From Tetracentron sinense (taxonomy: Eukaryota > Streptophyta > Magnoliopsida > Trochodendrales > Trochodendraceae): a DNA stretch of 64,000 nucleotides. Positions 4,779-31,279 of the stretch are shown here, one piece after another. The DNA lies in the NCBI GenBank assembly GCA_015143295.1, contig CM026552.1:61932944-61996943 (forward strand), read 5' to 3'. Both the position numbers and the translations under genes were made by a program. Within the stretch, counting starts at the first letter, position 1. Each line of letters begins with the position of its first letter. The notes beneath the pieces are model-generated. The model was not told the DNA's origin. It ran no database searches and worked only from the letters and a program-made list of their open reading frames with translations.

Positions 4779-4964
4779 ACCGAGCGATCGGTGGTTATGA
4801 CCGATCGATCGGTTGCCTACCGAGCGATCGGTGTTTATGACCGATCGACCGGTCAAAAACTCACTCTCTGGAAAATTTCCCCATACAAAATTTCTGACCG
4901 TGCGATAGCTACCGATCGATCGGTTATGGACCGATCGATCGCTGACTGGACCGAGCGATCGGTC
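4779..4964. repeat. Cluster of CGATCG palindromes in gypsy LTR
   Basis: Seven 14-bp sites of the form ACCGAKCGATCGGT, including the perfect palindrome ACCGATCGATCGGT, lie here. The same type of cluster sits at the same LTR position in the copies at 21274 and 28715. Confidence 0.85.
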
Positions 4965-5180
4965 TTCTGTATGTCTGGACTGTTTTGACCATATCTTTTG
5001 ACTCGCTCGTCGGATTTTGACGATTCAACTTGCGTTGGGTTCGTCTTTCGAAAACGAACATTTCTGATGTTTCGGAATGTCCGATTTCTCCCTTATTTAT
5101 TAATTTGACTACAAAAACGGCCAATTAGCTACGAAGGTGCCATTCATTAAAGATGAAAAATTCCGGGGTGCTACAGTGCG

Positions 5181-7193: not shown

Positions 7194-7395
7194 GGATTGG
7201 ATGCCCAGCCCTTTAAATAAGATAATTCTCCAGAATTTTTTCTTCTCTCCCTCTCCTCAAGTTCACGCCCAGCCCTCTCCCCCTTTGAGGGTGTACGGTC
7301 ACCCTTCCCCTTCTTCCTTTTTGTTTGGTTTTTGATCTTGATGATCAAGAATAAGTTCTTTGAAGATCAAGATTGGATCTTGTTTGATCAAGAAA

Positions 7396-9845
7396 TGTAG
7401 AGCCCCGGACCTTTTCACATTTAATGCATGACACTTTCGTTGCCATTTTGCCTTTAAAGAGGTATAATTAATAAATAAGGAATAAATTAGAAATTCCGAA
7501 ATGTCAGAAATGTTCCTTTTCGAAGTACGAACCCAACGCAAGTTGAATCGTCAAAATCGGACGAACGAGTCAAAAGATATGGCCAAAAAAGTCTGGACCT
7601 GCAGAAAATCGTAGCTCGGTTAGGCACTAAGGACGTAGCTCGGTTATGCACTAAGGACGTAGCTCGGAAGGCACTAAGGACGTAGCTCTGACAACGTGCT
7701 CTGATAAGGCACAGACAACGCATAGACAACGTACACTGATAACGTAGCTCTAGCTCTGATAGCGTATACGTTGTGCATCCGTTGTGCAACAGACAACGGG
7801 TACGTTGTACAGCAACAACGGGTACGTTGTACAGCAACAACGGGTACGTTGTACATAATACAACGGACAACGAGCTCAGCACTATGCATAAGACAACAGA
7901 CAACGTGTTCAGCACTGTTCACAGCACAACGTGTTCAGCACTGTTCACAACACAACGTGTTTGGCACTATTCACAGCTCAACGTGCTCGGTGCTCGCGTT
8001 TTGCAGAAATTTTAGTAAGGTTATTATGGTCTTTTGGTCGGTTCACTCTTACCTTAAGAATTTAACCCGAGCCTTTAGGGCTTCATTTCGACACTTAGAG
8101 AGATTGGGAGATAAGAAGAGAGGAGAGGGCGATTCCTAAACCTAGGGTTTCCAGTTTGGAGAGAAATCAAGGGGTTTGTGAACCCACGCTCAACTCAAGC
8201 CCATTTTTCTTCAAGATCAAGGCACAAACTCGTGAGGAGCATCTCCTCAGGCTAGGGCAGCAACTCACGGTCGTTTTTGGAATGGGATTTCTTCCTCACT
8301 TGATCAAGGTCGGTACTTCTTGCTACCCTCCTAGTTGTAGTTCCTCTTTTCCCCTTTATTTCTTTTGATTTTCTTTCATTTACACATGTGCTATGAGATG
8401 GATGGTTGTGAATGGTGAATGGTGAATGGAGATGGAATGGGCGATTGGATGCCAATGGTTGTGTTGTGATGATTAAAATGGGGAGGGCATTGTTCCAATA
8501 ATGAACATACTTGTATGATCTGAGTAAAACCCATCTAGAAAAGCATGTTGTAGAGTAAATGAATAATGAACACACCATGTTTGATGAAATGCCAAGGTGA
8601 ATAAAGTGAGTTGTAAATTAGGAAATGCATGCCTAATAAATTACGGATATTGTTAGGGTCTATGATAGTGTGTTTCTTGCTTTCCCTAAATGATGTGAAT
8701 ATTACATTGCTCAATCATTGATGTTATCTGTGTTGTGAAATTACCCAAATGTCATATTTAAATTTAAATGCAAGTATGTACACGGTTCCCACGAGCACGG
8801 CATGCATGACATGATTTATCAAGGTTTTCAAGAACATGGTTAGAGGTGGGACATATCCTACGATATGTTTTACCTCGCTTTTCACAAGAAGACAAGAACC
8901 AACATTCCACGAGGGGTCTCCCCTCACTCACAAGTGCATATCATGAAGAAGGGCCTCCCTTCCCTCGCAAGTACATACATATCATGAAGAAGGGTCTCCC
9001 TTCCCTCGCAAGTGCATTGCATAAAGAAGGGTCTCCCTTCCCTCTCAAGGCATCTCACAAGCGCATCTCACAAGTACATCTTACAAGTGTATCTCACAAG
9101 TTACATGATCACAAGCAAGCACGCATGACATGCATGACATGACACGACATACAAGAATCAAGAAAGATAGACAAGATGAGTTTTCAAGCACGAACATGGT
9201 ACCTTAAGTCAAGTCAAGTGCACGATGTTTTCAAGAGGTTTTATTGGCTTTCTACGAAATACAAGCATGATTATAAATTACTTTACTTCCTTGTATGATA
9301 TGAATTGTTTCCATCTAACATATATGAATTGCTCCTGATTTATGTATTGTCATTTTTATGCTATGACTATTGGTTAGTATTTGGTACCCGCTGAGTATTC
9401 CATGCTCAGTCGTACTTCTTATGTCGGCAGGTTCTGAGGGAGCTGCTGCTCCATTTGATGTTTGTGCTCCTGGTCCATGGTGGAGGAGGAGTACATCGAG
9501 GAACCTTTGGAGGAACCTCCAGTAGATGGTTACCATTAGGTGGTTGTAGATTCTGAGTGGATTAGCTGTGGGTGAGATGAGAGATATAACTTCATGTATT
9601 TTGGCGGGTCTGTCCGCACTTTCTTTTGGATTCCTTTTGTGTAAACTTGGATTCGTATATATATATATATAGAGCTTTGCTTAGACTTCCGTTGTGCTAT
9701 GTTAGAGTATGTTTCCGCTGTTTATATCCCCTATTGTATATGCTCTATGGGTTTTTACAGGTTGGTTTGTCAAGCAAGTCATGTAAGCCATGATTAGTCG
9801 TCCAAAGTTCACTCTAACTCCTAGGGTGGGTTTTGGGTCGCGACA
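7396..9845 (+). mobile_element. Solo LTR, Ty3/gypsy family
   Basis: Runs TGTAGAGCCCCGG...GGGTCGCGACA (2450 bp), with the 5-bp duplication agaaa at 7391-7395 and 9846-9850. It is the reverse complement counterpart of the LTRs at 19353-21631 and 26667-29111. It is inserted in a copia LTR. Where its relatives carry CGATCG palindromes it has an unrelated repeat module (7613-8003). Confidence 0.95.
7613..8003. repeat. Degenerate short-repeat module inside gypsy LTR
   Basis: Begins with GTAGCTCGG / GCACTAAGGAC repeats and changes into repeats of ACAACGGGTACGTTGTAC and ACAACGTGTTCAGCACTGTTC type, some of them inverted. It is bounded by CTGCAG and GCGTTTTGCAGAAA, the same borders that enclose the palindrome clusters in the other copies. 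Confidence 0.8.
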
Positions 9846-10157
9846 AGAAAGGTTCTTGGATCAAAGAAAAGAAGAAAAGATAAAAGAGCATGAAATTTGG
9901 AAGGGCCATTAGCTTCCATTAGAGAAAGCTTTAAAGGAAAAAGAAGGTTCGTGTGAATCGACAGGAGACTTGACACTTGTGAAGTTTTGCGAGTACTATT
10001 CTAACGTGGATTTGACTTAACAATTTCAAAGTCGCAAAGGTGAATGTTATTCTAACCTTCATTGAATAAAATCAATTAGAATCTTAGTCAGATCTTGGGA
10101 TTCGATGTATGCCCCCCAAGATCTGTGTTTCTAAAATTAAAAAGAGGCATACTTTCA

Positions 10158-14104: not shown

Positions 14105-16977
14105 GAACCAACACAATCGTTTAATCTCAGCCACGGTAAGGAACTCTAGCCTCACGGCATCTCTATCAAACAACACAACCATCTGACTCAACCACGGTGG
14201 AGAATTCTATCCTCACGGCATATCTCTCAGATCACAAACAACACAACCATCTGACTCAGCCACGGTGGGAACCTCTATCCTCACGGCATATCTATCAGAT
14301 AACACAACCATCTGACAAAGCCACAGTACGGACGGCATATCTATCAGAGGCACCACAACCTACTGACTCCGCCTCGGTACGGCATATCTATCAGATAACA
14401 CAACCATCTGACTCAACCACGGTGGGGACCTCTATCCTCACGGCATATCTATCAGATAACATAACCATCTGACTCAGCTACAGTGGGGACTTTTATCCTC
14501 ACGGCATATCTATCAGATCACACAACCATCTGACTCAGCCACGGTACAGACGGCATATCTATCAGAGGCATCACAACCTATTGACTCAGCCTCGGTACGG
14601 CATATCTATCAGATAACACAACCATCTGACTCAGCCACGGTACGGACGGCATATCTATTAGAGGCATCACAACCTACTGACTCAGTCTCGATACGGCATA
14701 TATATCAGATAACACAACCATCTGACTCAATCACAGTACGGACGGCATATCTACCAAAGGCATCACTGTTAGACATGTATACCCACAAAGTCATTCCAGA
14801 ATTGTATTTCTCTATTTCTAAATCAATAAGTTCATATTTTACATTCACACATTGTCTTCTACATTGGGTAATATATCAAAAGTATCTCATTGGATGAGAT
14901 TACTTTGTCCCTTAGGTAACATTGTAGGAAAACCATCCACTTAGTTGATAACTGATTGCTAAGGACATATGGTTTTCCCGGTTCCTTGTAGACCTAAAAT
15001 TGTTCTAAGTTAATCAGGATGCATCTGGACAATGTATTCCTAATAACTTACACATTGTTAGTTCCATATGATGGAGTGATGAATCTCAATCATTGAGAGA
15101 AGGGTCTCTTGACTAAGATGTAGATATAAGTAAGAAGTACTTATATTGCAACTGGATCACTCAGTGGATACCCTTAGAAATATACTGTCTTTATATTTAG
15201 GGTAGTCCATTTGACAGATTGTCCTTAACCTGAGAAGTCGACATCTTCTCTAGTATTTGCCTATGTTACTTTGATGTAGCCAATTGTCAATGTCCAACAC
15301 ACCGGACTAAATACGGGCTCGTTGGGTTATATACGCTGTACTGGAAGAAGTGTGTGTACGCTTGATAAGGATTCCACTACTCTTACAGAGTAAATAATAT
15401 TGAGATGATACTTGTCAAAACCGGACTTGAAAACCCAGTGCTGGTATTTATCGATGAAATGGTTTTATCGAGGAATTTATTTTCTGTATAAAAGAAATGT
15501 AATAATAATTATTATTTCTTTTAAACAATTTTTAAAAATGTTTTGCAAGTCCAAGTTTAACTAAAAGTATCAAAGAGAATGGGTTCTCAATATTAACCAG
15601 GGATTAAAGACAGTATTAGATATTGTCCCGTAAGCTTATAACAATATTGGAAGTGGAGGGAGTGATCTGTAAACAAATCTTGAGATAGAAATACCTGCAA
15701 GTAATTCTCTATTTTCTGGAGGTTAATCATATTGTGTTAATGGCATTAATTGTGATTGGTGGAAGTCCAAGGATATAGATAAATTTCTATAATCCTAATG
15801 GAGTATAGGAAATGTGTTTCCTAGTAACAATGCTTTAACCGAAAGGTTGAGTACTTGGTCCCACAACTGGAAATCAGAGATCCTTTTAGATCCCACACAC
15901 AAGGACTTTCTTAAAGTGTTTAATTTAATTAAATAATTAAATTAATTTATTTCTCTAAGAAATCACTATATGATAAAGTGAAGCTCTAAAAGATGGAATT
16001 ACATTAAATGTGAAAAACCATTTGACTCAGCCACGGTGGGGACCTCTATCCTCACGGCATATATCAGATAACACAACCATCTGACTTAGCCACGGTATGG
16101 ATGGCATATCTATTAGAGGTATCACAACCTACTGACTCGGCCTCGGTACGGCATATATATCAGATAACACAACCATCTGACTCAACCACGGTACGGATGG
16201 CATATCTATCAGAGGCATCACAACCTACTGACTCGGCCTCGGTACGGCATATCTATCAGATAACACAACTATCTGACTCAGCCACGGTATGGACGTTATA
16301 TCTATCAGAGGCATCACAACCTACTGACTCATCCTCGGTATGGCATATCTATCAGATAACACAACCATCTAACTTAGCCACGGTAAGGACTTCTATCCTC
16401 ACGGCATATCTATCAAATAACGCAACCATCTGACTCAACCACGGTGGGGACTTCTATCCTCACGGCATATCTATCAGATAACACAACCATCTGACTCAGC
16501 CACGGTGAGGACTTCTATCCTCACGGTATATCTATCAAATAACACAACCATCTGACTCAGCCACAGTGGGGACTTCTATACTCACGGCATATCTATCAGA
16601 TAACCCAACCATCTGACTCAGCCACGGTGGGGACTTCTATCCTCACGGTATATCTATCAAATAACACAACTATCTGACTCAGCCACGGTGGGGACTTCTA
16701 TCCTCACGGCATATCTATCAGATAACACAATCATCTGACTCAGCCACGGTGGGGACTTCTATCCTCACGGCATATCTATCAGATCACACAACCATCTGAC
16801 TCAGCCACGGTATGGATGGCATATCTATCAGAGGCATCACAACCTACTAACTCAACCTCGATACGGCATATCTATCAGATAATACAACCATCTGACTCAG
16901 CCACGGTGAGGACTTGTATCCTCACAGCATATCTATCAGATAACACAACCATCTGTTCTCCCCTGACTTAGTCAAAA
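14105..16977. repeat. Two-unit satellite array (61 and 96 bp)
   Basis: One unit of about 61 bp alternates CACGGTGGGGACTTCTATC with CACGGCATATCTATCAGAT and CAACCATCTGACTCAG. A second composite unit of about 96 bp adds GAGGCATCACAACCTACTG and CCTCGGTACGG. The two types are mixed in irregular order over 2.9 kb, interrupted at 14767-16020. The first unit's share is higher on the right (16380-16790), suggesting local amplification there. Confidence 0.9.
14767..16020 (+). mobile_element. 5' part of a copia LTR inside the satellite
   Basis: Begins exactly at the LTR end TGTTAGACATGTA after CATCAC of a satellite unit. It matches LTR 228-2430 through the GAAAAACCA block, then switches to satellite at AACCA, a short stretch shared by both partners. 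The remaining roughly 0.9 kb of LTR is missing. An inserted element later truncated by recombination at microhomology is the simplest explanation. Confidence 0.85.
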
Positions 16978-17732: not shown

Positions 17733-19352
17733 ACTCAAAGTCAATCTCCTATGTATCTAACACCCATCGACTCTAGATGTTTCTCAAACACCTTCTGAGG
17801 AAGTGCTTTAGTAAATGGGTCTACCATGTTGTTCACTGCGCACTCTTGGATAACTCGATGTTTCCACTCTTGACAATCTAATTGTCTTGAATCAAATGAA
17901 ATCTCTTTTCATTGTGCTTAGTCCTCTGATTTGCTCTAGGCTTAAGCAATTGCACTACTATTATCACTATAAAGTATGATAAGAGATTCTATCTAGGAAA
18001 CAACACCAAGTGCTTGGATAAACTATTTATCCATACTATGTTTAGATAAACTCTTTTATCCATACTGAAAGCTAGAAAATTTAATCCATTTCTAATACTT
18101 GAAAATGTGCTTAATTGTTGTCCAATGCTTAGGACCCGGGTTTGATTGATATCTACTCACGATACTCACTACGTGACAAATATCAGGTCTTGTACATAAC
18201 ATAGCATACATGAGACTTCCCACTGCAGATGCATATATGATATGGCTCATCTGTTCTCTTTCATCATCAGTCTTTGGAGACTTTGATTTGGAGAGACTAA
18301 TTCCATGCCTAAAGGGTAACATCCCTTTCTTGAAATTTTTCATGCTATATTTGCGCAAGAGCTTATCAATCTAATTGACTTGGGTTCCCAACATCCTTTT
18401 TCTTTCAATCTCTAAACAATTTAAGACCAAGAATATAGGAGGCTTCACCAAGGTCCTTCATAGCAAAGTTACATGACAACCAGATTTTAACAGTAGATAA
18501 CATTCCTACATCATTCCCAATGAGCAGAATATCATCTACATAAAGAACTAGGAAAGTTATTGCACTCCTACTGAACTTCTTGTACACACATGTCTCATCT
18601 ATGTTTTGTTGAAAACCAAATGATTTGATTGATTCATCAAAACGGATGTTCCAACTCCAAGAAGTTTGTTTAAGACCATAAATGGATTTTATCAATTTGC
18701 ATAATTTATTATTTTGGCCATGGAGTTCAAAACCTTCGGGCTGGTCCATATAAATATCCTCTTGAATGTTTCCATTTAAGAAAGCGGTTTTGACATCCAT
18801 CTGCCAAATTTCATAATCACAATAAGCTGCAATTGATAACCGAATTCTAATGGACTTTAGCATTGCTACTGGTGAAAAGGTTTCCTCATAGTCGATACCA
18901 TCTCTTTGACTATTCCCTTTCACCACAAGCCTTGCTTTAAAGGTAGACATTTCCATCGGATCCACGTTTCCTCTTGTAGATCCATTTGCACCCAATGGGT
19001 CTAATTCCCTCAAGTTTTTCAACCAGAGTCCAAACACCATTCGAGTATATGGAGTTCATTTCAGATTCCATGGCCTTATTCCAATTATCAATATCAATAT
19101 CACATATTGCTTCTTGATAAGTGTAAGGATTATCATCTAAGGAATCTGATTCCATAGAATATACCTCATGCTGATAAGACAATCTATCTGGAGATCGATT
19201 AATCCTTCTACTTCTCCTAGGCTGTTGTGCATTTAAAGGTTCAATTAAGATGGGTTTAACCATGGTCATGTTATTCTGATTTTGCTCCTCAAGATCTATT
19301 CTAAATTCATATTCTCTATTCAGGATCATATCTTCTTCTAAAAAATGGCATT
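17733..19352 (-). pseudogene. Copia pol: integrase end, RT and RNase H (broken)
   Basis: Read leftward from 19352: an integrase C-terminal/linker region with a basic RRSRRI stretch, then reverse transcriptase with FKARLVVKG, the QMDVKTAFLNG block, IYGLKQ and the catalytic YVDDILL motif (about 18530), then the connection region with SAVGSLMYAM and RPDI, and a decayed RNase H ending near the HIGDWL equivalent. The open frames 19365-18937, 19040-18405 and 18358-18092 are in different frames, so at least two frameshifts separate them. The left 350 bp is further decayed. The gypsy insertion at 19353 removed contact with the rest of integrase. Confidence 0.88.
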
Positions 19353-20104
19353 TGTCGCGACCCAAAACCCACCCTAGGAGTTAGAGTGAACTTTGGACGA
19401 CTAAACATGGCTTACATGACTTGCTTGACAAACCAACCTGCAAAAACCCACAGAGCATATACAATAGAGGACATTATAGCAGAAACATAACTATAAAACA
19501 CAGCGGAAGTCTAACAAACCTCTAAGTATATACATATGGTCCAAGTTTATACAAAAAGTAACCAGAAGAAAGTGCGGACAGACCCGCCAAAATACATGGA
19601 TATAATCTCTCATCTCACCCACAGCTAATCCACTCAGAATCTACAACCACCTAATGGTAACCCTCTACTGGAGGTTCCTCAAAAGGCTCCTCGACGTACT
19701 CCTCCTCCACCCATGGACCAGGAGCACAAACATCAAATGGAGCAGCAGCTCCTTCAGAACCTGCCGACATAAGAAGTACGGCTGAGCATGGAATACTCAA
19801 CGGGTACTAAATACTAACCAACAGTCATAGTATACAGATAGCATACATAAAGTAGGAAACAAATTGCATATATAGAACAGGAACAATTTATATCATACAA
19901 GGAAGTAAAGCAATTTATATTCATGCTTGCATTCAAAAGACTGATAAAACCCTTGAAAACATCGTGCACTTGACTTGACTTGAAATACCCTTTGCGTGAT
20001 TGGGAACTTGTTAACCGTGTCATGCTTGTCATGCTTGCATCATGCGTGCCATGTCATGTCATGCGAGTATCATGCTTGCTTATTCATAATTTAAACATGT
20101 TCAC

Positions 20105-20309
20105 ATGCCTAGTTACCGTTCATAGTCCGTCACAACTAGTACCCTATATGCGGAATGACATGCCTAGTTGCCGTTCATAGTCCGTCACAACTAGTACCCT
20201 ATATGCAGATGGGTATGCCTAGTTGCCGTTCATAGCCCGTCGCAACTAGCATCCATGCGTGTAATGTCATGCAGAGTTATGCGTGTCATGTCATGTCATG
20301 TCATGTCAT
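20105..20309. repeat. 55-bp tandem repeat (3 copies) and short GTCAT repeat
   Basis: ATGCCTAGTTGCCGTTCATAG units start at 20105, 20160 and 20215. Five GTCAT units follow at 20285-20309. Confidence 0.88.
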
Positions 20310-21273
20310 GCGTGTCATGCGATGCTATGCATGTCATGCGAGGGGATGGGAGACCTTTCCCTATGCAATGCATGATTGTCTTGCCCTTGTCAAAAACGAA
20401 GTGAAACATATCTTAGGATATGCCCCACCTCTACGTCCCATACTTAAGACATCGGTAAATCACGTCATTTCATGCGTGCTCGTGAGATCGTGTGCATACT
20501 TGCATTTGGAATTAAATATGGCAATTTGGGGTGATTCACAAGGCATAGCATATAACAATTTAAGTGAGTAATAATCTACACATTTTAAGAAATGTAAGAA
20601 ACACACTATCATGAACCCTAACAAATTTCAAGAGCAATTAAGCATGGGTTCTCTTAATTTATCATTTATTTTATTCACCTTGGCATTTCATCAAACATGG
20701 GGTGTGTTCATTATTCACTTAAACCTAGATCATGCTTTTCTAGGTGGGTTATGCTCACATCACACTTGTATGTTCATTATTAGTACAATGCCGTTTCCCA
20801 TTCGTTCATCACATCATCCACACGGCATCCATTCGCCAACATCCATCTCCATTCACCATTCATACCACCAATCTCATAACACATATATAAGTGAAGGAAA
20901 ACAAGGAGAAACAAAGGAAAAAGGGAAGCTATAACTAGGAGGGTAGTAAGAAGTACCGACCTTGACAAATGGGGGAAGAAATCCTCCACCAAACGCACGT
21001 GAGTTGCTGCCCTAACTTGAGGAGAGTGCCCCACACGAGCTTGAGCCGAGATCTTGAAGAAAATGGACTTGAGGTGAGTGTGGGTTCACACCCCTTTGAT
21101 TTCTCCTCCAAAATCAAACCCTAGGTTAGGGATCGCCTTCTCCTCCTCTCCTTAGCTCCCAATCTTCTAAGTATTGTAAATAAGCCCTAAAGGCTCGGGC
21201 AAGACTCTTAAGGTAAGAGTAAACCGCCCAAAAGACTAAAACACCCTTACTAAATTTTCTGCAAAAACGCGAG

Positions 21274-21420
21274 TACCGAGCGATCGGTGTTAATGACCGA
21301 TCGATCGGTTAAAATTTCACTCTCTGGAAAATTTCCCCATACAAAAATCTTGACCAGTCGATAGCCTCCGAGCGATCGGTTTTGGACCGATCGATCGCTC
21401 CATGGACCGAGCGATCGGTT
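21274..21420. repeat. CGATCG palindrome cluster, 3' LTR
   Basis: Five sites of the ACCGAKCGATCGGT type between GCAAAAACGCGAGT and CTGCAGG. One pair fewer than the 5' LTR. Confidence 0.8.
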
Positions 21421-21631
21421 GCCTGCAGGTCCAGACTGTTTTGGTCATATCTTTTGACTCGCTCGTCGGATTTTGACGATTCAACTTGTGTTGGGTTCGT
21501 ACTTCGAAAAGGAACATTTCTGACGTTTCGGAATTTCCAATTTCTTCCTTATTTATTAATTATACCTCTTTAAAGGCAAAATGGCAACGAAAGTGTTATA
21601 CATTAAATGTGAAAAGGTCCGGGGCTCTACA

Positions 21632-21644
21632 TCCTCCCCCCCTT
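21632..21644 (-). other. Polypurine tract of the gypsy element
   Basis: Minus strand AAGGGGGGGAGGA directly abuts the 3' LTR start TGTAGAGCC. Confidence 0.85.
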
Positions 21645-21732
21645 ACAAAAATTTCGTCCTCGAAATTTAGACGCTACTTGCATTACAAACCAAAAAGAAA
21701 TTTACAAGTCATATACAAACTTATGCAAAAAC

Positions 21733-24700
21733 TCATTCAAATAATTCTGGGTACTTCGCTTTGACTTCGGCTTCACGCTCCCATGTAGCTTCTTCCCGAG
21801 CATGGTGTTGCCATTGCACAAGAACCAAAGGGATTGTCTTGTTGCGAAGCACTTGATCTCTTCGATCCAAAATCTGAACGGGCTTTTCAATCAAGGTGAG
21901 GTCCTCTCGAATCTCCAACGGGTCCAAGTCTATGACATGCGAAGGATCCGCAATGTACTTCCGAAGCATAAACACATGGAAAACGTTGTGAACTGCGGCC
22001 ATGTGAGGTGGGAGAGCTACCCTGTAAGCAACCTCACCAACTCGCGTGATAATCTCAAAAGGCCCAACATACCGAGGACTGAGCTTGCCTCGCTTTCCAA
22101 ATCTCATGATCCCTTTGCTAGGAGATACTTTCCTTTCTCCTACCTCATCCCAATAGAGAGGAGACCTACAACTTCGCCCATACAAGGCCTCAAATGGTGC
22201 CATTTGGATACTCGCCTGATAGCTGTTATTATAGGCGAATTCAACCAAAGGCAAGTGCTCTTCCCAACTACCTCTGAAATCCAACATACAAGCCCGAAGC
22301 ATGTCTTCAATGACTTGGTTCACTGTCTCGGTTTGTCCATCCGTCTGTGGATGAAAAGCGGTGCTGAAATCAAGTCGGGAACCCATAGCCTCTTGGAAGC
22401 TTTTCCAGAATCGTGATGTGAATCTTGGATCCCGATCTGACACAATACTAACGGGCACTCCGTGCAACCTCACCACTTCCTTGATGTACAAAGCGGCTAA
22501 CTGACTAGAGTTGAAAGTAGTTCGGTAAGGCAAGAAGTGAGCGGACTTCGTCAAACGATCCACTACTACCCATATCGCATCTGAGCCCCTTGCCGTCTTT
22601 GGCAAGCCAACTATGAAATCCATGGATATGTTCTCCCATTTCCACTCGGGAATCGGAAGGGACTGTAATAGACCTGCGGGCCGCATGTGTTCTGCTTTCA
22701 CCTGTTGACACACCAAGCACCGTGCTACATATTCCGCAACCTCCCTCTTCATATTCCGCCACCAAAAGTGACTCTTGAGGTTCCGGTACATCTTTGTACC
22801 CCCTAGATGCACTATGTACTTCGAACGGTGTGCTTCATCCAAAATCTCTCTTCGAAGATCTGCATTGGCTGGGACGCACAGCCTTCCCTTGAATGTGATA
22901 GCACCCCGACTAGTGAGAGAAAAGTCTTCACTGCCCTTGGCAACTTCCTTGTCCCGGAAAGCCAACAATTCCGCATCCATGGCTTGATATTCTTGGATCA
23001 AATCTATAATGTACGGCCGAACCGTAACATTTGCCAAGGTAGGACCACGGACAGAGTTATTCACACTGATGTCCAGATTTGCCAAATCTTCTAGTAGCTT
23101 CCATTCTTGAACTAACATGTGTGCTAACAACCCCTGAGGTCTTCTACTCAAAGCATCAGCCACTACATTTGCTTTACCCGGGTGGTATTGAATGGTACAA
23201 TCATAGTCCTTCAGAAATTTCATCCAACGCCGTTGCCTTAGATTCAATTCCTTTTGGGAAAAGAGGTACTTGAGGCTCTTGTGGTCCATATACACATAGA
23301 ATTCCACCCCGTATAAGTAATGTCGCCAGATCTTGAGTGCAAACATGACTGTGGCAAGCTCTAAGTCGTGCGTGGGGTAATTCTTCTCATGCTCCTTCAA
23401 TTGCCTCGATGCATAGGCAATGACCTTCTTGTGTTGCATAAGCACACATCCAAGTCCAACGTGTGAGGCATCACTGTACACCTCATACCCAAGAGGTCCG
23501 GATGGCACTGTAAGGACAGGAGCTGTAGTAAGCCTCTTCTTCAGTTCCGTGAAACTGATCTCACACTTGTCGCTCCATACAAACTTCGCATTCTTCCTTG
23601 TCAGGTAAGTAAGCGGTACTGCAAGGCTAGAGAAACCCTCTACGAATCTCCTGTAGTAGCCTGCCAACCCAAGGAAGCTGCGTATCTCCGTAACACTCTT
23701 GGGCTTCGCCCAACTCATAACTGCTTCGATCTTCTTCGGATCTACCGAGATACCTTCTGCAGAAACAACGTGGCCTAGGAATGCCACCTCTTCCAACCAA
23801 AACTCACACTTGCTAAGTTTGGCGTATAGCTTGTGCTCTCTTAGCATTTCCAAAGCAAGACGTAGGTCGCGTGTGTGATCTTCCCTTGTCTGGGAATAGA
23901 CCAAAATGTCATCAACAAATACAATCACACACCTATCGAGATATGGCCGGAACACCCGGTTCATCAAATCCATAAAGGCTATCGGCGCGTTCGTGAGTCC
24001 AAAAGGCATCACCAAGAACTCGTAGTGTCCATACCGAGTCCTAAAAGCAGTTTTGGGAACATCTTCTGCCTTAATCTTCAACTGGTGATAACCCGATCGA
24101 AGATCTATCTTTGAGAAAAATCTCGCTCCTTTCAACTGATCGAACAAGTCATCAATTCTAGGCAATGGGTACCTATTCTTTATAGTGACTTTGTTCAGTT
24201 GCCGATAATCAATGCACATCCGCATCGAGCCATCCTTCTTCTTAACAAATAACACCGGGGCACCCCACGGTGAGTCACTTGGTCGAATGAAACCAAGGCC
24301 TTGTAATTCCTCCAATTGAGTCTTCAACTCCTTAAGTTCAACCGGGGCCATTCTATACGGAGCCCGAAAGATGGGAGCTGTGCCTGGTGCAAGCTCGATC
24401 ACAAACTCAATCTCCCTGTCTGGAGGTAATCCTGGCAACTCCTCTGGAAACACATCCAGGAATTCACTCACGACTGGAATTGTCGATGAGTCCTTTGCCT
24501 CGGGGTTAGCTAGGCTCAACGCCGCAAAACGAGCGATATCTCTACCTTTCAACCCCCGAAAGTGAAATGGTTTTCCTTCTACCGGCTTGAAGAGTACCAT
24601 CTTCTCAAAGCAAGCTACATGCCCATGATGCGCTGCTAACCAATCCATTCCCAATATAACATCAAAGTCTTGGAATCCAAGGACGATGAGATCAACTGCC

Positions 24701-24908
24701 AACTCGTGGCTTCCAACTTGGACCACACTATTTCTATACACTTTATCTGCCAATACTGTTTTGCCGAGGGGAGTCGAAATGGCTAACTCCTGTTTTAGCT
24801 GTCTAGGCTCCTCAGAAAAGCCTTCTGAAAAACTCGGCGAGACAAACGAATGAGTAGACCCGGTATCAATCAACACTCGAGCCAAATACTCATTGACTAG
24901 TAGGGTTC
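21733..24908 (-). CDS. Gypsy pol: protease, RT, RNase H, integrase, chromodomain-like tail
   Basis: An open frame runs from 25023 to the TGA at 21733; the part after the proposed intron (24908 down) is the real coding segment. Counting residues of that frame: aspartic protease LIDTGS near 51-56; RT with YRQLNK near 273 and VFVDDIL at 368-374; RNase H YSDAS near 516; zinc-binding HHCC region 732-772; DD35E integrase with D802, D863 and E899; a GPF motif (VGPFEI) and a chromodomain-like end (VLVQW, ATWE). All catalytic residues are present. Between residues 965 and 966 about 50 residues usual in this clade are absent, an in-frame deletion of the integrase C-terminal domain. Pol should be read through splicing to gag as one polyprotein, which here would be stopped in gag. 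Confidence 0.92.
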
Positions 24909-25056
24909 CTGAAATTTTAGCTAGCGGAGTTAATCCATGCATCAACAGCGTATTCGTGTAGGTATATATACATATAGAACATGCCGAGTACGTACACAAA
25001 GAATATAGCATAAAACATAACAATCACGAATAAAGAAAATAACTCCAAACGCGTAC
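24909..25056 (-). other. Predicted 148-bp intron between gag and protease
   Basis: On the minus strand the segment starts GTACGCGTTTGG and ends GCTAAAATTTCAG. It is T-rich, with TTAAC as a possible branch site about 30 bases before the acceptor. Its length is 3n+1, and gag and pol are in different frames that it separates. Removing it joins CAA-G to GA-ACC, giving the GTLL motif before the protease that Tekay-type elements have in a continuous frame. Without splicing gag ends at the TAA at 24919-24917. Confidence 0.75.
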
Positions 25057-26305
25057 CTTGCACCACATCATCAGATGCAAGTGCATCACCCTCTGTCAAA
25101 GCAAACACACGTCCCTGGTTCGCCTGGCGAGACTGAGGTGTAGACCGGGTAGTCTGAGATGACGCCTGATATGATCCTGCTGGGCGTGCTGGTGGCCTAA
25201 TCCCCTGAGACTGGCCTGGTAAATGCCGGGTAGGGCAATCCCTGATCACGTGGCCCTGGCGACCACAGTGAAAACATCCACCCGATGCTCTTAGGCAATC
25301 CCCTGCTGGGTGCCTTCGGCCGCATGAAGGGTAGGCCTCGTGCGTGCGGGTAGGAGGAGCCTGAGGTGGAGCATATCTCACCACCTGAGGTGCAACTGGC
25401 TGTGGAGCCGGGAGAGCCTGAGGTCGAGGTGCCTGTGGCACGTACTGCCGCGGTGCTGGGGCCGCATAAGTCGGCCTCATCGGTGGTGCTGACCATGTAT
25501 ACTGGTAAGGGCCGGTACGAGCCCGCCTCTCTGGAGGTGCTGAACTACTGGCTTGGCCTCTCGCCAACTCTCTCTTCTTAGACACCGCTTCAGAATTGGC
25601 CTCGACCAATAAGACCTTGTCTACCACTTCAGGGTAGGTAGCATGCCTGAAAACGGAAACCTTCTCCATAATAACATCCTTGAGCCCTTGCTCAAATCTT
25701 CTCGCCTTCATTGCCTCAGTAGCAACCATATGAGGCGCAAATCTCGACAATTCTGAGAACTTGGCCTCATAAGCGGCCACGGACATCGAACCTTACTCAA
25801 GGTTGATGAATTCTCTCTCTTTCTTTTCCCGTGCACCGATTGGAAAATACTTCTTGTAAAACGTATCCTTGAACTCCTCCCAAGTCCAAGGTTGACCCTG
25901 CATGGTCAAGTCTCGCGTCCTCAATGCGGACAACTACCAATGATGGGCTTCACCCTCTAGCATGAAAACTGCCCATGCTACTCTATCCTCCTCTGTAGGC
26001 GAGAGGACCGCAAAAATCTTCTCCATCTGGAGGATCCACGCCTCCGCAGCAAGAGGGTCCACACTCCCATGGAAGGATGGAGGCCTCAATCTCCTGAATG
26101 CCTCAACTCCAGCTGTACGATGTACTGGAGCTGCAGGCGGTGGAGTAGGTGCCGCCGACGATGGTATAGCTTGCCGAGCCGCCAGTATGGCGAGTGTCTC
26201 AGCAATAGAGCCTAAGACCTGGGAGAGGTCCGGCTGCTCATCCTCATTTCTGGAAGAAGATGAAGCACTGGTGTGTGGTCCACGACCCCGTGTGCCCCGC
26301 CTCAT
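25057..26305 (-). pseudogene. Gypsy gag with two nonsense codons
   Basis: Starts ATG at 26305-26303 and stays in one frame to the proposed donor at 25056. The N-terminal half contains FRRLRPPSFHG and a capsid core (AEAWILQMEKIF); the C-terminal part contains FSELSRFAPHMV, a proline/alanine-rich stretch, and a CCHC zinc knuckle CFHCGRQGHVIRDC. TAG at 25936-25934 follows EAHHW, and TAA at 25795-25793 follows INLE. Both are single-base changes in an otherwise conserved frame with no frameshift, so the inactivation looks recent. Gag would form the particle and bind RNA. Confidence 0.88.
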
Positions 26306-26650
26306 GACTAAAGTCCTGAGAACAATAGCACCACATGAGTCTCACTTGAAACCACAGTTTATTTCAATGTCATTTCACAATAATTCAATTTGTATTAGTT
26401 ATATAATACTAATATACATCACATCAAGTCATCAGAGTATTCATCACATTATACTTATACTTTAGTGTTCTAGCGTACCTAGGACCCGTACTTGGTTAAA
26501 GCAACCATTTTAGACTAAGACTAAAGTTTAGTCTTAAACTTGGAACCAGACTCGTTCCCGACTCACTTCCTTCCTAACTTGTTTCCTAACATATGCTCTT
26601 GTCAAGCCGTGGTATAAGATTCTAAGTGACCCTAGAGACCTAAAGCCTAA
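26306..26650 (-). other. Gypsy 5' leader, no coding sequence
   Basis: Untranslated stretch between the primer site and gag ATG. AT-rich, no motif recognised. Confidence 0.6.
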
Positions 26651-26662
26651 GCTCTGATACCA
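26651..26662 (-). other. Primer binding site, initiator Met tRNA (gypsy)
   Basis: Minus strand TGGTATCAGAGC, four bases inside the 5' LTR, complementary to the 3' end of plant initiator methionine tRNA. Confidence 0.9.
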
Positions 26663-27427
26663 CTTCTGTCGCGACCCAAAACCCACCCTAGGAGTTAGAG
26701 TGAACTTTGGACGACTAAACATGGCTTACATGACTTGCTTGACAAACCAACCTGCAAAAACCCACAGAGCATATACAATAGAGGACATTATAGCTGAAAC
26801 ATAACTATAAAATACAGCGGAAGTCTAACAAACCTCTAAGTATATACATATGGTCCAAGTTTATACAAAAAGTAACCAGAAGAAAGTGCGGACAGACCCG
26901 CCAAAATACATGGATATAATCTCTCATCTCACCCACAGCTAATCCACTCAGAATCTACAACCACCTAATGGTAACCCTCTACTGGAGGTTCCTCAAAAGG
27001 CTCCTCGACGTACTCCTCCTCCACCCATGGACCAGGAGCACAAACATCAAATGGAGCAGTAGCTCCTTCAGAACCTGCCGACATAAGAAGTACGGCTGAG
27101 CATAGAATACTCAACGGGTACTAAATACTAACCAACAGTCATAGTATACAAATAGCATACATAAAGTAGGAAACAAATTGCATATATAGAACAGGAACAA
27201 TTTATATCATACAAGGAAGTAAAGCAATTTATATTCATGCTTGCATTCAGAAGACTGATAAAACCCTTGAAAACATCGTGCACTTGACTTGACTTGAAAT
27301 ACCCTTTGCGTGATTGGGAACTTGTTAACCGTGTCATGCTTGTCATGCTTGCATCATGCGTGCCATGTCATGTCATGCGTGTCATGCGAGTATCATGCTT
27401 GCTTATTCATAATTTAAACATGTTCAC

Positions 27428-27645
27428 ATGCCTAGTTGCCGTTCATAGTCCGTCACAACTAGTACCCTATATGCGGAATGACATGCCTAGTTGCCGTTCA
27501 TAGTCCGTCACAACTAGTACCTTATATGCAGATGGGTATGCCTAGTTGCCGTTCATAGCCCGTCTCAACTAGCATCCATGCGGAATGTGGATGCCTATTT
27601 GCCGTTCATAGCCCGTCGCAACTAGCATCCATGCGTGTAATGCCA
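27428..27645. repeat. 53-55-bp tandem repeat, 4 copies
   Basis: ATGCCTAGTTGCCGTTCATAG units start at 27428, 27483, 27538 and 27591; one more than in the 3' LTR. Confidence 0.88.
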
Positions 27646-27660
27646 TGCAGAGTTATGCGT

Positions 27661-27750
27661 GTCATGTCATGTCATGTCATGTCATGTCATGTCATGTCAT
27701 GTCATGTCATGTCATGTCATGTCATGTCATGTCATGTCATGTCATGTCAT
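27661..27750. repeat. (GTCAT)18 microsatellite
   Basis: Eighteen perfect GTCAT units; the 3' LTR has five at the same place. Open frames across it are artefacts. Confidence 0.97.
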
Positions 27751-28714
27751 GCGTGTCATGCGATGCTATGCATGTCATGCGAGGGGATGGGAGACCTTTC
27801 CCTATGCAATGCATGATTGTCTTGCCCTTGTCAAAAACGAAGTGAAACATATCTTAGGATATGCCCCACCTCTACGTCCCATACTTAAGACATCGGTAAA
27901 TCACGTCATTTCATGCGTGCTCGTGAGATCGTGTGCATACTTGCATTTGGAATTAAATATGGCAATTTGGGGTGATTCACAAGGCATAGCATATAACAAT
28001 TTAAGTGAGTAATAATCTACACATTTTAAGAAATGTAAGAAACACACTATCATGAACCCTAACAAATTTCAAGAGCAATTAAGCATGGGTTCCCTTAATT
28101 TATCATTTATTTTATTCACCTTGGCATTTCATCAAACATGGGGTGTGTTCATTATTCACTTAAACCTAGATCATGCTTTTCTAGGTGGGTTATGCTCACA
28201 TCACACTTGTATGTTCATTATTAGTACAATGCCCTTTCCCATTCGTTCATCACATCATCCACACGGCATCCATTTGCCAACATCCATCTCCATTCACCAT
28301 TCATACCACCAATCTCATAACACATATATAAGTGAAGGAAAACAAGGAGAAACAAAGGAAAAAGGGAAGCTATAACTAGGAGGGTAGTAAGAAGTACCGA
28401 CCTTGACAAATGGGGGAAGAAATCCTCCACCAAATGCACGTGAGTTGCTGCCCTAGCTTGAGGAGAGTGCCCCACACGAGCTTGAGCCGAGATCTTGAAG
28501 AAAATGGACTTGAGGTGAGTGTGGGTTCACACCCCTTTGATTTCTCCTCCAAAATCAAACCCTAGGTTAGGGATCGCCTTCTCCTCCTCTCCTTAGCTCC
28601 CAATCTTCTAAGTATTGTAAATAAGCCCTAAAGGCTCGGGCAAGACTCTTAAGGTAAGAGTAAACCGCCCAAAAGACTAAAACACCCTTACTAAATTTTC
28701 TGCAAAAATGCGAG

Positions 28715-28900
28715 TACCGAGCGATCGGTGTTAATGACCGATCGATCAGTTGCCTACCGATCGATCGGTTTCATAACCGAGCGATCGGTTAAAATTTCAC
28801 TCTCTGGAAAATTTCCCTATACAAAAATCTTGACCAGGCGATAGCCTCCGAGCGATCGGTTTTGGACCGATCGATCGCTCCATGGACCGAGCGATCGGTT
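28715..28900. repeat. CGATCG palindrome cluster, 5' LTR
   Basis: Seven sites of the ACCGAKCGATCGGT type, lying 210-400 bp inside the LTR in transcription sense. Confidence 0.85.
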
Positions 28901-29116
28901 GCCTGCAGGTCCAGACTGTTTTGGCCATATCTTTTGACTCGCTCGTCGGATTTTGACGATTCAACTTGCGTTGGGTTCGTACTTCGAAAAGGAACATTTC
29001 TGACATTTCAGAATTTCCAATTTCTTCCTTATTTATTAATTATACCTCTTTAAAGGCAAAATGGCAACGAAAGTGTTATACATTAAATGTGAAAAGGTCC
29101 AGGGCTCTACAGCATT

Positions 29117-30126
29117 CCTGCTTACAAACAACTTTTGTTCGCTAGGATTATAGAAATAATATTCATAAGTTTCTTTTAAGTATCTTATAAATAGGCACTT
29201 CTCAGTCCTACTTTCTAACTTGTTAAAGTTCTGCTTTCGCACATGAACTGGACAACCCCATACTCTGACATGTTTTAGACTAGGCTTTCGCCTCATCCAT
29301 AGTTCAATTGGAGTCTTGGAAACAGACTTAGAAGGTACCCTATTCAATAAATAGATTGCAGTCTCTAATGTATATCCCTAAAAAGAAATTGGCAAATCAG
29401 TATTATTCATCATTGAACGAACCATATCCAATAGGGTTCGATTTCTTCTTTCTAAAACACCATTAAGCTGGGGTGTTCCTGGGGGTGTTCCTGGGGGAGT
29501 CCATTGGGATAAAATTCCATTATCTCTAAGATAATTCATGAACTCATTCGAGAGATACTCTCTTCCTCAATCGGATCTGAGAGTTTTAATACATTTACCT
29601 AATTGCTTTTCTACTTCATTTCGGAATTCTTTGAACTTTTCAAAAGATTCTGACTTTTGTTTCATTAGATATATATAACCATATCTTAAAAAATCATCTG
29701 TGAATGTAATAAAGTAGATAAAGTCACCTCTGGCTGAATGATTCATCCACATACATTAATGTGAATTAATTCCAATATACTTGTAGCTCTCATAGATTTG
29801 CCTGTAAATGGCATTTCGGTCATTTTACCTTTCAAACAAAGTTCATAAGTTGGATAAGGTTCAACATGTAAATGGTTTAAAGGACCATCATTTACCAATC
29901 TGTTGAGCCTATCCAAATTGATATGGCCTAATCTGAGATGCCATAAGTATGTTGGATTCACAGACTCTCTACCTCTTTTCTGAGGTGTCACACTGGTGAA
30001 CTCTTTATCCTCAATGTTATTAACAGAATTGCTTATAGGATCAAGATAATAAAGACCATTAGACAATGTGCCGGAAACAATACAACTATTATTGTATTTA
30101 ATAACAACATTACTATCAAAATGCAC
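29117..30126 (-). pseudogene. Copia integrase region (broken)
   Basis: Separate frames on the minus strand show a GAG-pre-integrase domain (LWHLRLGHIN, then the CLKGK block), the integrase core start (YFITFTDDF, GYIYLM, LRSD) and the late core (PIELWMRRKPSLKHVRVWGCP). Frame changes near 29745 and between 29567 and 29347 break it. The rest of the polyprotein continues left of the gypsy insertion at 19352. Confidence 0.85.
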
Positions 30127-30772
30127 TGAATAACCAATTAAAGATTAAACTAGAAACAGAAATTATATTTATGCGCATGTCTGACACATATAAACAGTCT
30201 TTTAAAACTAAAATCTTATCTAAAGCAAATTCTAAAACATAAATCCCAATGGCGATCGCAGCAACACTTGCTTCCGTTCCCATCCTCTTCTTGACTTCCC
30301 CATCATTGAGCTTTCTGCTCTCCTGAAACCCATGTAACATATTACAAATATGTGAGGTAGTTCCACTATGTACATACCAAGAGTTAGAGGAACCAACAAT
30401 GAAGTTGGATTCAATGATGAAAGATTCGAATATACCTTCCAAAGGCTTGTCCTTGAGAGATGCTAAGTAAACTTTGCAATTCCTCTTCCAGTGACCTGGT
30501 TTCTTACAATAGAAACAGACATTCTGATTCGTTTCCTTGTCCTTCTTCTCAGAAGCTTTCTTACTCTTACCCTTCTTGCCTTTGAGGAACTTGGAGAAAT
30601 TGGACTTCTTCTTTTTTTTGTCTTTGCCCTTAGGCCTAGGCCTTGAAAGTCCAACTCCCTCTACCACATTTGCATAGAGCTTAATACGCTTCATAAGGTC
30701 ATCAGCTCCTTGTGACATGTTTAGGAGCTCTGGCAGAGCAGTCTCCAATTTGTTCATATTGCAATTCAACAC
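30116..30772 (-). pseudogene. Copia gag end and protease region (broken)
   Basis: Contains a lysine-rich segment, a CCHC knuckle CFYCKKPGHWKRNC near 30500 and a protease-like region around 30380 where the expected D-S-G reads HSGTTSHIC, so the catalytic aspartate is changed. The frame then shifts into the integrase part. Confidence 0.8.
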
Positions 30773-30946
30773 AAAAGTAGAAAAAGGATTCCAAGAGAGA
30801 GTTCAGGATCGCATTCATTTGACTCTATTCATCAAGATCCGCTCCAAGAGTCAAAGAGTTCATTAATGAACTCCCATCATCTTGACAACATGCTCCCAGA
30901 CTAGGCTACCATCAGACATCCTGGTTCCCATCAGTCCTTTCATAGC

Positions 30947-31279
30947 CTACTGCCTAACAGTTCTGTTCTGTTCCCCAAACATCTCTCTGAGATTAGTCAA
31001 TATGTGCTTAGCTGAAGCAAAACTCTCGTGCTGTTGCTGAAGGACATTCGACATAGATGCAGGCATGTAGCATTTGGCCAAACTATTTGACTCATGCCAC
31101 TTTAAGGCTTTCTCAACCAGCTTCGGGGTCTGAATTATCTCATCAAATTCTGGATAGTCGGAAGTAAGAACATAAGCTATCTTCTGAGAGATAAGCACAA
31201 TGTCAAGGTTTCTTTTCCAGTCCACAAATTTTGGACCAGTCAAATGATTCTCTTCTAGAATCTTGGAAAGGTGATTCAT
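30947..31279 (-). pseudogene. Copia gag N-terminal part
   Basis: Begins MNHLSKILEENHLTG, with FVDWKRNLDIVL and HILTNLREMFG, the usual N-terminal gag signature of copia elements. The frame ends near 30947 and does not join cleanly to the frame at 30772, so gag is interrupted. Confidence 0.85.

What the first reader, a model, noticed from the sequence alone, without database searches (positions are those of the whole stretch)
24909..25056. Spliceosomal intron between gag and protease of a Ty3/gypsy chromovirus
The gag frame runs off into a 148-bp T-rich segment with GTACGC at its start and TTTCAG at its end. Removing it restores one gag-pol frame exactly at the motif that joins gag to protease in this clade. 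Introns at a gag-pro border are known from Ogre/Tat elements, but I know of none in Tekay-like chromoviruses. Retention would end translation after gag, so splicing could set the Gag to Gag-Pol ratio, replacing frameshifting.
Basis: partly seen in the sequence, partly recalled or inferred. Interest (0 to 1): 0.8.

Follow-up and report, generated by a model that had tools for sequence, protein, structure and literature searches.

The report
Intron splitting retrotransposon's gag from protease
A very common jumping element in this plant genome carries a small intron between its two main genes, and rare copies in which exactly that intron is missing suggest that the host cell splices it out of some of the element's RNA, which would let the element make coat protein and enzymes in different amounts.

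Summary
On the minus strand, 25056-24909 is a 148-bp T-rich GT...AG segment at the gag-protease joint of a Ty3/gypsy chromovirus (19353-29111). It is fixed in the family: a pattern over its 5' edge finds 2373 places, and 40 of 40 nearest loci keep GT...AG. Lengths of 137-168 bp in all three frame classes, and more indels than the adjoining exons, exclude a frameshift overlap. A YTRAY branch-point-like motif persists in 35 of 35 copies through four spellings. Forty-seven places lack the segment, with a base-exact join in 30 of 30 fetched. One such copy matches an intron-bearing one over 521 bp around the joint, with LTRs free of substitutions and a perfect TSD, as expected of reverse-transcribed spliced RNA. 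Related families have uninterrupted gag-pro, so the intron was probably gained. Retention ends translation inside the intron in 34 of 35 copies. Best reading: a partially spliced intron separating Gag from Gag-Pol. No RNA was examined; about half of the empties share a haplotype and may be one lineage. The Ogre intron lies elsewhere (PROT-RT), and related families use one frame, not frameshifting.

The parts
19353..29111 (-). whole Ty3/gypsy chromovirus carrying the intron (9759 bp), inserted in a Ty1/copia element
   Evidence: LTR ends TG...CA and TSD GCATT at 19348-19352 and 29112-29116
26667..29111 (-). 5' LTR (2445 bp)
   Evidence: 22 substitutions in 2279 aligned sites against the 3' LTR
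19353..21631 (-). 3' LTR (2279 bp)
26651..26662 (-). primer-binding site TGGTATCAGAGC, the initiator tRNA-Met type (recalled)
   Evidence: sequence next to the 5' LTR
25057..26305 (-). gag exon (CCHC zinc knuckle); stops at 25936 and 25795 in this copy
   Evidence: zf-CCHC E 3.5e-5; Retrotrans_gag 20.3 bits, below its cut-off
24909..25056 (-). intron, 148 bp, AAG|GTACGC ... TTTCAG|GAA, phase 1
   Evidence: empty sites at 47 places; 40 of 40 nearest loci GT...AG
24929..24933 (-). branch-point-like TTAAC (YTRAY), A at 24930, 21 nt before the intron's last base
   Evidence: YTRAY kept in 35 of 35 introns as TTAAC 19, TTGAC 14, CTGAC 1, TTAAT 1
24917..24919 (-). gag-frame stop TAA met when the intron is retained
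21733..24908 (-). pol exon: protease, RT, RNase H, integrase, chromodomain-like end
   Evidence: Pfam RVP_2 6e-28, RVT_1 9.6e-38, RT_RNaseH 2.3e-32, Integrase_H2C2 3.9e-18, rve 8.5e-5, Chromo 1.5e-4 (the last two under their cut-offs)
21632..21646 (-). polypurine tract next to the 3' LTR
   Evidence: sequence read directly

Best explanation
The segment is a spliceosomal GT-AG intron that this chromovirus family gained at the gag-protease joint, splitting what was a single gag-pol frame. Unspliced RNA would be translated as Gag with a short tail of no conserved length, and would be the RNA that is packaged and reverse-transcribed, which is why nearly all copies keep the intron. A fraction of RNA spliced by the host would encode Gag-Pol. 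Now and then spliced RNA is itself reverse-transcribed and integrated, leaving copies that lack exactly the intron. Shown: the segment, its fixation, free length, kept splice-like signals, precise absence in rare copies, absence from related families, stop on retention. Inferred: that the spliceosome removes it, that both RNAs coexist, and that this sets the Gag to Gag-Pol ratio. The confidence given is for 'an intron spliced from some of the RNA'; the rivals about where the empties come from and about the role overlap with it. For the ratio role alone I would say 0.6.
For: Empty sites: 47 places with at most 3 mismatches, 13 exact, reversed-pattern control 0. Allowing 1 to 31 bases between exact flanks, all 13 matches have the precise join and none keeps residual bases. 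In 30 of 30 fetched empties (of 47) the gap between exon ends is 0. L044 (empty) and L088 (145-bp intron) are identical over the 306 bp before and 215 bp after the joint. L044 has 0 substitutions in 2303 LTR sites and TSD GAGGT, so it was inserted very recently and whole. In a tree of +-200 bp around the joint (93 rows, 27 empty) the state changes 10 times and well-supported branches force at least 5. Fixed intron: 2373 places; GT...AG in 40 of 40 nearest loci; AATTTCAG at the 3' edge in 30 of 30 loci chosen by the 5' edge alone (one of these, L087, is also L040). Non-coding behaviour: 14 gap runs against 1 and 0 in the adjacent 150-bp exons, diversity 0.102 against 0.054 and 0.043; lengths in all three frame classes, 14, 12 and 9 of 35. 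YTRAY kept in 35 of 35, its A 21 nt from the end in 33. Retention meets a stop inside the intron in 34 of 35; L071 (168 bp) stays open. No intron at the homologous site in 6 of 6 stretches from other families. The young intron-bearing L088 (0 LTR substitutions in 2306) shows that intron-bearing elements moved recently.
Against: No RNA evidence was available. 25 of the 47 empties carry A in the codon where bearers almost always have GTG (GTA in 24, CTA in 1): with otherwise exact flanks 12 empties have GTA and 13 GTG, while among bearers 10 exact places have GTA against 560 with the GTG pattern. These empties are scattered in the long-flank trees, so recombination or one old intronless lineage probably explains part of the empties, and the 15 and 17 changes of those trees overstate independent losses. 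The empty state is strongly clustered on the local tree (10 changes against 23 to 24 for shuffled labels, 0 of 500 as low). Within +-150 bp, 19 of 30 empties lie closest to another empty, 10 to a held bearer, 1 tied (66 bearers held of 2373). The ends share AGG, so a microhomology deletion would give the same product. The 5' site matches the plant consensus (recalled) only in part: AG|GTA and G at +5, but C at +4 and +6. A test for extra constraint on GT was uninformative: 560 places with NN at GT against 561 with NN at a neighbouring dinucleotide. Conservation of the first intron bases in L071-L100 is by selection, since the 5' pattern fetched them. The exon stretch 151-300 bp upstream is as diverse (0.098, 5 gap runs) as the segment.
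Confidence: 0.87

Rival explanations
1. The intron is real, but the empties are not spliced retrocopies: they are an ancestral intronless lineage whose joint was spread by template switching during reverse transcription.
For: Other families lack the intron. 25 of 47 empties share the A variant before the joint, rare among bearers. 19 of 30 empties lie closest to another empty within +-150 bp, for example L041/L051 and L057/L064. Empties are clustered on the local tree and mosaic on the long-flank trees.
Against: L044 is identical to bearer L088 over 521 bp around the joint, while each of the 29 other fetched empties differs from it by 12 or more in 300, and all 13 exact empties were fetched. 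L070 matches bearers over +-100 bp in a different (GAGCCC) background. The +-200 tree still forces at least 5 changes.
Confidence: 0.12
2. Empties arise by DNA deletion between the AGG repeats at the two ends, not by splicing.
For: AAGG at the 5' edge and CAGG at the 3' edge share AGG.
Against: 3423 repeat pairs of 3 nt or more at 100-200 nt spacing lie in the same 2.7 kb, yet 68 loci show only 6 other gaps of 20 bp or more in their 2.6 kb of exon flank, none of them of 100-200 bp; three lie close together at 941-955 of the upstream flank. No residual-length variants of the empty site exist with exact flanks.
Confidence: 0.03
3. Overlapping gag and pol frames with +1 ribosomal frameshifting, as in Ty3 (recalled).
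For: In the window copy the gag and pol frames overlap by about 100 nt and pol lies in the +1 frame.
Against: Segment lengths fall in all three frame classes (14, 12 and 9 of 35), so the relative frame is not kept; the segment is indel-rich and absent at 47 places.
Confidence: 0.02
4. The intron is spliced but has no regulatory role: a neutral passenger removed from most mRNA, while genomic RNA escapes splicing for other reasons and unspliced RNA yields little Gag (nuclear retention or decay).
For: Related families do without it, with one frame. Tail sequence and length after retention are not conserved.
Against: Inheritance of the intron requires unspliced RNA, and Pol requires removal in 34 of 35 copies, so any self-sufficient lineage must make both forms; empties are only about 2% of matches (47 against 2373).
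Confidence: 0.25
5. A private or non-functional insertion in one copy.
For: The window copy is degenerate (gag stops).
Against: 2373 genome-wide matches of the 5' edge.
Confidence: 0.01

Closest known systems
[quoted passage not shown]
   Same: Small intron inside the coding region of a plant Ty3/gypsy element, spliced from a subset of transcripts; retention gives the upstream product, splicing the full polyprotein (PMC6317226 section 13 read).
   Different: Ogre's inter-ORF region separates PROT from RT and averages 274 bp (same section); here the intron separates GAG from PROT in a chromodomain element, with precise intronless genomic copies.
BARE1 and EVD (Ty1/copia) facultative introns
   Same: Splicing divides RNA into pools for Gag and for Gag-Pol; the BARE1 intron is short (104 nt) and U-rich (PMC3735527 passages; PMC12786077 and PMC8892269 passages).
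   Different: There the spliced RNA makes Gag only and the unspliced makes Gag-Pol; here the logic is reversed. DNA copies of spliced BARE RNA could not be amplified from barley DNA; here 47 empty sites exist, at least some of them of that kind.
CRR centromeric retrotransposons of rice, and Tf2 of fission yeast
   Same: Splicing of Ty3/gypsy chromoviruses: one sentence on CRR in PMC3735527 (chromovirus status recalled) and one on a cryptic Tf2 intron in PMC7175516.
   Different: [quoted passage not shown] the Tf2 intron is called cryptic and tied to silencing. Neither is said to join gag to protease.
Foamy retroviruses, Pol from a spliced RNA
   Same: Pol expression depends on splicing (one sentence in PMC5014426).
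   Different: Recalled: Pol is made separately from Gag there; here splicing would fuse Gag to Pol.
Marked-Ty experiment with an added artificial intron (1985)
   Same: Precise intron loss as proof of an RNA intermediate (described in PMC12786077, passage).
   Different: Here the intron is natural and most copies keep it.

Membership tests
Spliceosomal (U2-type) GT-AG intron | GT...AG ends kept across copies | tested here: met
   40 of 40 nearest loci; 3' AG in 30 of 30 loci chosen by the 5' edge
Spliceosomal (U2-type) GT-AG intron | branch-point motif YTRAY about 20-40 nt from the 3' end (recalled) | tested here: met
   35 of 35; A at 21 nt in 33, 22 in L079, 19 in L092
Spliceosomal (U2-type) GT-AG intron | T-rich relative to exons (plant introns) | tested here: met
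   41.9% against 21.6% and 29.7%
Spliceosomal (U2-type) GT-AG intron | length not tied to reading frame | tested here: met
   all three frame classes, 14, 12 and 9 of 35
Spliceosomal (U2-type) GT-AG intron | removed from RNA | not testable with these tools
   no RNA; indirect only: precise empty genomic copies
Spliceosomal (U2-type) GT-AG intron | selective constraint on GT above neighbouring bases | tested here: inconclusive
   560 against 561 places with the dinucleotide freed
Tekay-clade chromovirus | order PR-RT-RH-INT with chromodomain at the C-terminus, upstream of the polypurine tract (this excludes CRM, not Reina or Galadriel) | tested here: met
   the Chromo match (22.1 bits) and rve are below Pfam cut-offs; ORF ends at 21733, polypurine tract at 21632-21646
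Tekay-clade chromovirus | long LTRs and 5-bp TSD, as in the beet Tekay elements of PMC3605345 (passages); the 5-bp TSD is shared by other chromoviruses there | tested here: met
   5-bp TSDs, LTRs of 2.3-2.4 kb
Tekay-clade chromovirus | groups with Tekay reference elements in an RT tree | not tested
   no reference sequences of plant elements were on hand
Ogre (Tat lineage) | intron between PROT and RT | tested here: not met
   protease lies downstream of the intron
Ogre (Tat lineage) | additional RNase H domain between RH and INT | tested here: not met
   the two RNase H models match overlapping stretches directly behind RT; no second RNase H match at E <= 0.001
BARE/EVD-type Gag-only splicing | spliced RNA encodes Gag alone | tested here: not met
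   retention, not splicing, meets a stop (34 of 35)

The most novel reading that the evidence does not exclude
A chromovirus family turned its single gag-pol frame into a splicing switch by gaining an intron: unspliced RNA is both genome and Gag message, spliced RNA is the Gag-Pol message. Leakage of spliced RNA into reverse transcription repeatedly founds intronless copies that lack free Gag and rarely multiply, which keeps the intron in about 98% of copies. The genome then holds a natural record of how often the translation pool invades the replication pool.
Probability: 0.5. Interest if true: 0.8.

Novelty: new variant of a known kind. Interest (0 to 1): 0.68.

Why it matters
How plant retrotransposons with one gag-pol frame make more Gag than Pol is largely open. 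This family offers a direct handle: an intron exactly at the gag-protease joint, found at more than two thousand places, with rare precise intronless copies that can be dated. It lets one ask, from genome sequence alone, how strictly a retrotransposon keeps its spliced (translated) RNA out of reverse transcription; for BARE such DNA copies could not be amplified (PMC3735527 passage). It also places an intron gain inside a mobile element between related families of one genome.

Tried and rejected
Frameshift overlap: rejected by intron lengths in all frame classes. Private insertion: rejected. Origin of the intron by tandem duplication of an AGGT-bearing exon stretch: other families read GAAGGTACACT or GATGGTACACT at this site, which resembles the 5' splice site, but beyond that no similarity of the intron to its own or to five of these families' exons clearly exceeded shuffles (best: L111, 26 of 300 shuffles as high), so not supported. 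Known RNA family, self-splicing introns included: 0 Rfam matches at gathering score in 19300-29150. Relatives elsewhere: a pol-fragment scan of viral contigs matched patterns at 5 stretches but none encodes a relative; exact junction patterns found 0 in viral contigs and 0 in genome contigs. No collection on hand holds other plant genomes, so spread among species is unknown. The GT-constraint test was uninformative. Counting independent losses on 1.3-kb flank trees was downgraded after the A-variant haplotype was seen. Literature: ten searches showed no title or abstract opening on a gag-protease intron in a Tekay-like element; six of the lists were capped (20 of 60, 20 of 38, 20 of 28, 20 of 22, 15 of 44 and 12 of 17), one search found 0 papers, most subscription papers are not held, and the Ogre splicing paper PMC2596294 was not held.

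Full report
What is there. The element lies on the minus strand at 19353-29111, with LTRs of 2445 and 2279 bp, a 5-bp target-site duplication GCATT on both sides, a tRNA-Met-type primer-binding site (type recalled) and a polypurine tract. Pfam finds a zinc knuckle in gag, and protease, reverse transcriptase, RNase H, integrase zinc finger and core, a Tf2-1-like SH3 domain and a weak chromodomain match in pol; the integrase core, chromodomain and Retrotrans_gag matches are below Pfam's cut-offs. Its LTRs differ at 22 of 2279 aligned sites. This copy is degenerate, with two stops in gag. It sits inside a Ty1/copia element on the same strand.

The segment. From 25056 down to 24909 runs a 148-bp stretch that begins GTACGC, ends TTTCAG and is 41.9% T, against 21.6% and 29.7% T in equal lengths on either side; 0.9% of 148-nt windows of gag-pol are as T-rich. 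Read through, the gag frame stops at 24919-24917 within the segment; the pol frame is open only after the stop at 25026.

Fixation. A DNA search of the window's own 1.16-Gb genome had 2746 candidates and scored 40, all holding the segment. The window locus and 39 others, 40 of 40, keep GT...AG at lengths 145, 146, 148 or 151 (the window appears twice there, as window and L001). A 27-base pattern over the 5' edge finds 2373 places with up to 3 mismatches and none with the reversed control. The first thirty listed (all exact, all on contigs C1 and C2) keep the 3' edge AATTTCAG in 30 of 30, with lengths from 137 to 168 bp in the 28 where the joint could be measured (L040 and L087 are one locus).

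It behaves like an intron, not like coding DNA. In 35 aligned copies (of 38 with long flanks; L008, L087 and L098 dropped because the joint could not be measured) pairwise diversity is 0.102 in the segment against 0.054 and 0.043 in the adjacent 150-bp exons, and 14 distinct gap runs fall in it against 1 and 0. The exon stretch 151-300 bp upstream is as diverse (0.098, 5 gap runs) as the segment, so the contrast holds for the near exons and the pol side (0.041, 2 gap runs at 151-300 downstream). Lengths fall in all three frame classes: 14, 12 and 9 of 35. Codon-position differences among 33 bearers show third-position excess: 0.130 against 0.048 and 0.047 in the last 144 nt of the gag exon, 0.063 against 0.036 and 0.041 in the first 200 nt of the pol exon. 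A YTRAY motif at one alignment position is kept in 35 of 35 as TTAAC, TTGAC, CTGAC or TTAAT, its A 21 nt before the last base in 33, 22 in L079 and 19 in L092. Retention meets a stop inside the segment in 34 of 35, at many different codons; in L071 (168 bp) the frame stays open into pol (the script's label for L071 was wrong; its printed row shows no stop).

Empty sites. A 27-base pattern that joins the two flanks exactly at GT and AG finds 47 places with up to 3 mismatches, 13 of them exact, none with the reversed control. In the 30 of 47 fetched, the gap between the exon ends is 0 in 30 of 30. Letting 1 to 31 bases stand between exact flanks finds the same 13 and no imprecise residue. Against the intron-side count this is about 2%, a rough figure since the two patterns differ in reach.

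Are the empties products of spliced RNA? The clearest case is L044. Against L088, which has a 145-bp intron, it is identical over the 306 bp before and the 215 bp after the joint except for the intron. Its two LTRs show 0 substitutions in 2303 aligned sites (one is a base longer) and it has TSD GAGGT; L088 has 0 substitutions in 2306 and TSD CAAGT. So a complete, very young insertion lacks exactly the intron. Another empty (L046) has 24 substitutions in 1564 sites of partial LTRs, so empties differ in age. Trees of the flanks alone, upstream (61 rows, 26 empty) and downstream (65 rows, 29 empty), need 15 and 17 state changes, with at least 11 and 7 forced by well-supported branches (loci with under 1000 bp of the flank left out, so L009-L040 are not in them). 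Those counts are inflated. 25 of the 47 empties carry A in the codon just before the last Val codon (GTA in 24, CTA in 1). With otherwise exact flanks, 12 empties have GTA and 13 GTG, while bearers have 10 exact GTA places against 560 for the GTG pattern. The GTA empties are scattered in the flank trees, the mark of recombination or of one older intronless lineage. Within +-150 bp, 19 of 30 empties are closest to another empty, 10 to a held bearer and 1 is tied. A tree of +-200 bp only (93 rows, 27 empty; L047, L068 and L069 left out as indel-broken, and four loci without a measured joint left out) needs 10 changes, at least 5 forced, and 8 without the GTA empties; shuffled labels would need 23 to 24, so empties are also strongly clustered. 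L044, and on a second background L070 (identical to bearers over +-100 bp), are the firm cases. Deletion between the AGG repeats at the ends would look the same, but 68 loci show only 6 other gaps of 20 bp or more in 2.6 kb, none of 100-200 bp, although 3423 repeat pairs with that spacing exist there.

Origin. Six stretches from other families of this genome, taken from 60 places found by a different protease motif, have no intron at the homologous VVEGTL site; three read gag into protease in one frame (L107 and L111 without a stop, L108 with one stop), and three (L106, L109, L110) are degenerate but contiguous there. Four of the six show 39-44% tblastx identity to this family's protease region; their exact kinship was not tested. 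The intron was therefore most simply gained in this family, and the ancestral arrangement was a single frame, not a frameshift. No source of the intron sequence was found.

How it most likely works. Any self-sufficient lineage of this family must make both RNAs: the intron is inherited only through unspliced RNA, and Pol can be made only after removal (34 of 35). Unspliced RNA ends after Gag, so partial splicing would give more Gag than Gag-Pol. That ratio, and translation of unspliced RNA (which may instead be retained in the nucleus or decayed), are inferred.

Comparison. [quoted passage not shown] In BARE and EVD splicing yields Gag-only RNA (passages of PMC3735527, PMC12786077 and PMC8892269), the reverse logic. 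PMC12786077 states that plant LTR elements generally lack introns, naming Ogre and EVD among the exceptions (passage). PMC3735527 also mentions Bagy2 and CRR, and reports that DNA copies of spliced BARE RNA could not be amplified (passages). Passages of PMC7730604 report splicing of expressed sunflower elements, with Tekay members absent from the expressed set. Passages asked for introns and splicing in PMC3485330, PMC3059260 and PMC3605345 showed none for gag-protease joints. Ten searches of the held library showed no title or abstract opening on a gag-protease intron in a Tekay-like element (several lists capped); the library lacks most subscription papers. I file this as a new variant of a known kind.

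Noticed in passing
18405-19365 and 29036-31279 (minus strand): The chromovirus is nested in a Ty1/copia element: copia RT (RVT_2) lies on one side, and SH3_retrovirus, gag_pre-integrase, Pol_BBD and CCHC domains on the other, with TSD GCATT at the break.
   Followed up: partly
27659-27720: The 5' LTR holds an expanded run that translates as repeated MSCHV on the + strand; the 3' LTR (20269 on) has fewer units. This may explain part of the LTR length difference.
   Followed up: no
14110-14766 and 16016-16955: Tandem arrays in two nearby, mutually similar blocks; the second has units of 61 and 96 bp.
   Followed up: no
L071 intron: An AT-repeat expansion makes the intron 168 bp and leaves gag open into pol without splicing.
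   Followed up: no
G000, 25 of the 47 empty sites: Empties with A in the codon before the last Val codon share a variant rare among intron-bearing copies (10 exact matches), suggesting an intronless lineage or recombination tract that has itself spread.
   Followed up: partly
4472-5176 and 7395-9846: Stretches 75-94% alike to this element's LTRs lie elsewhere in the window, possibly older LTRs of related elements.
   Followed up: no
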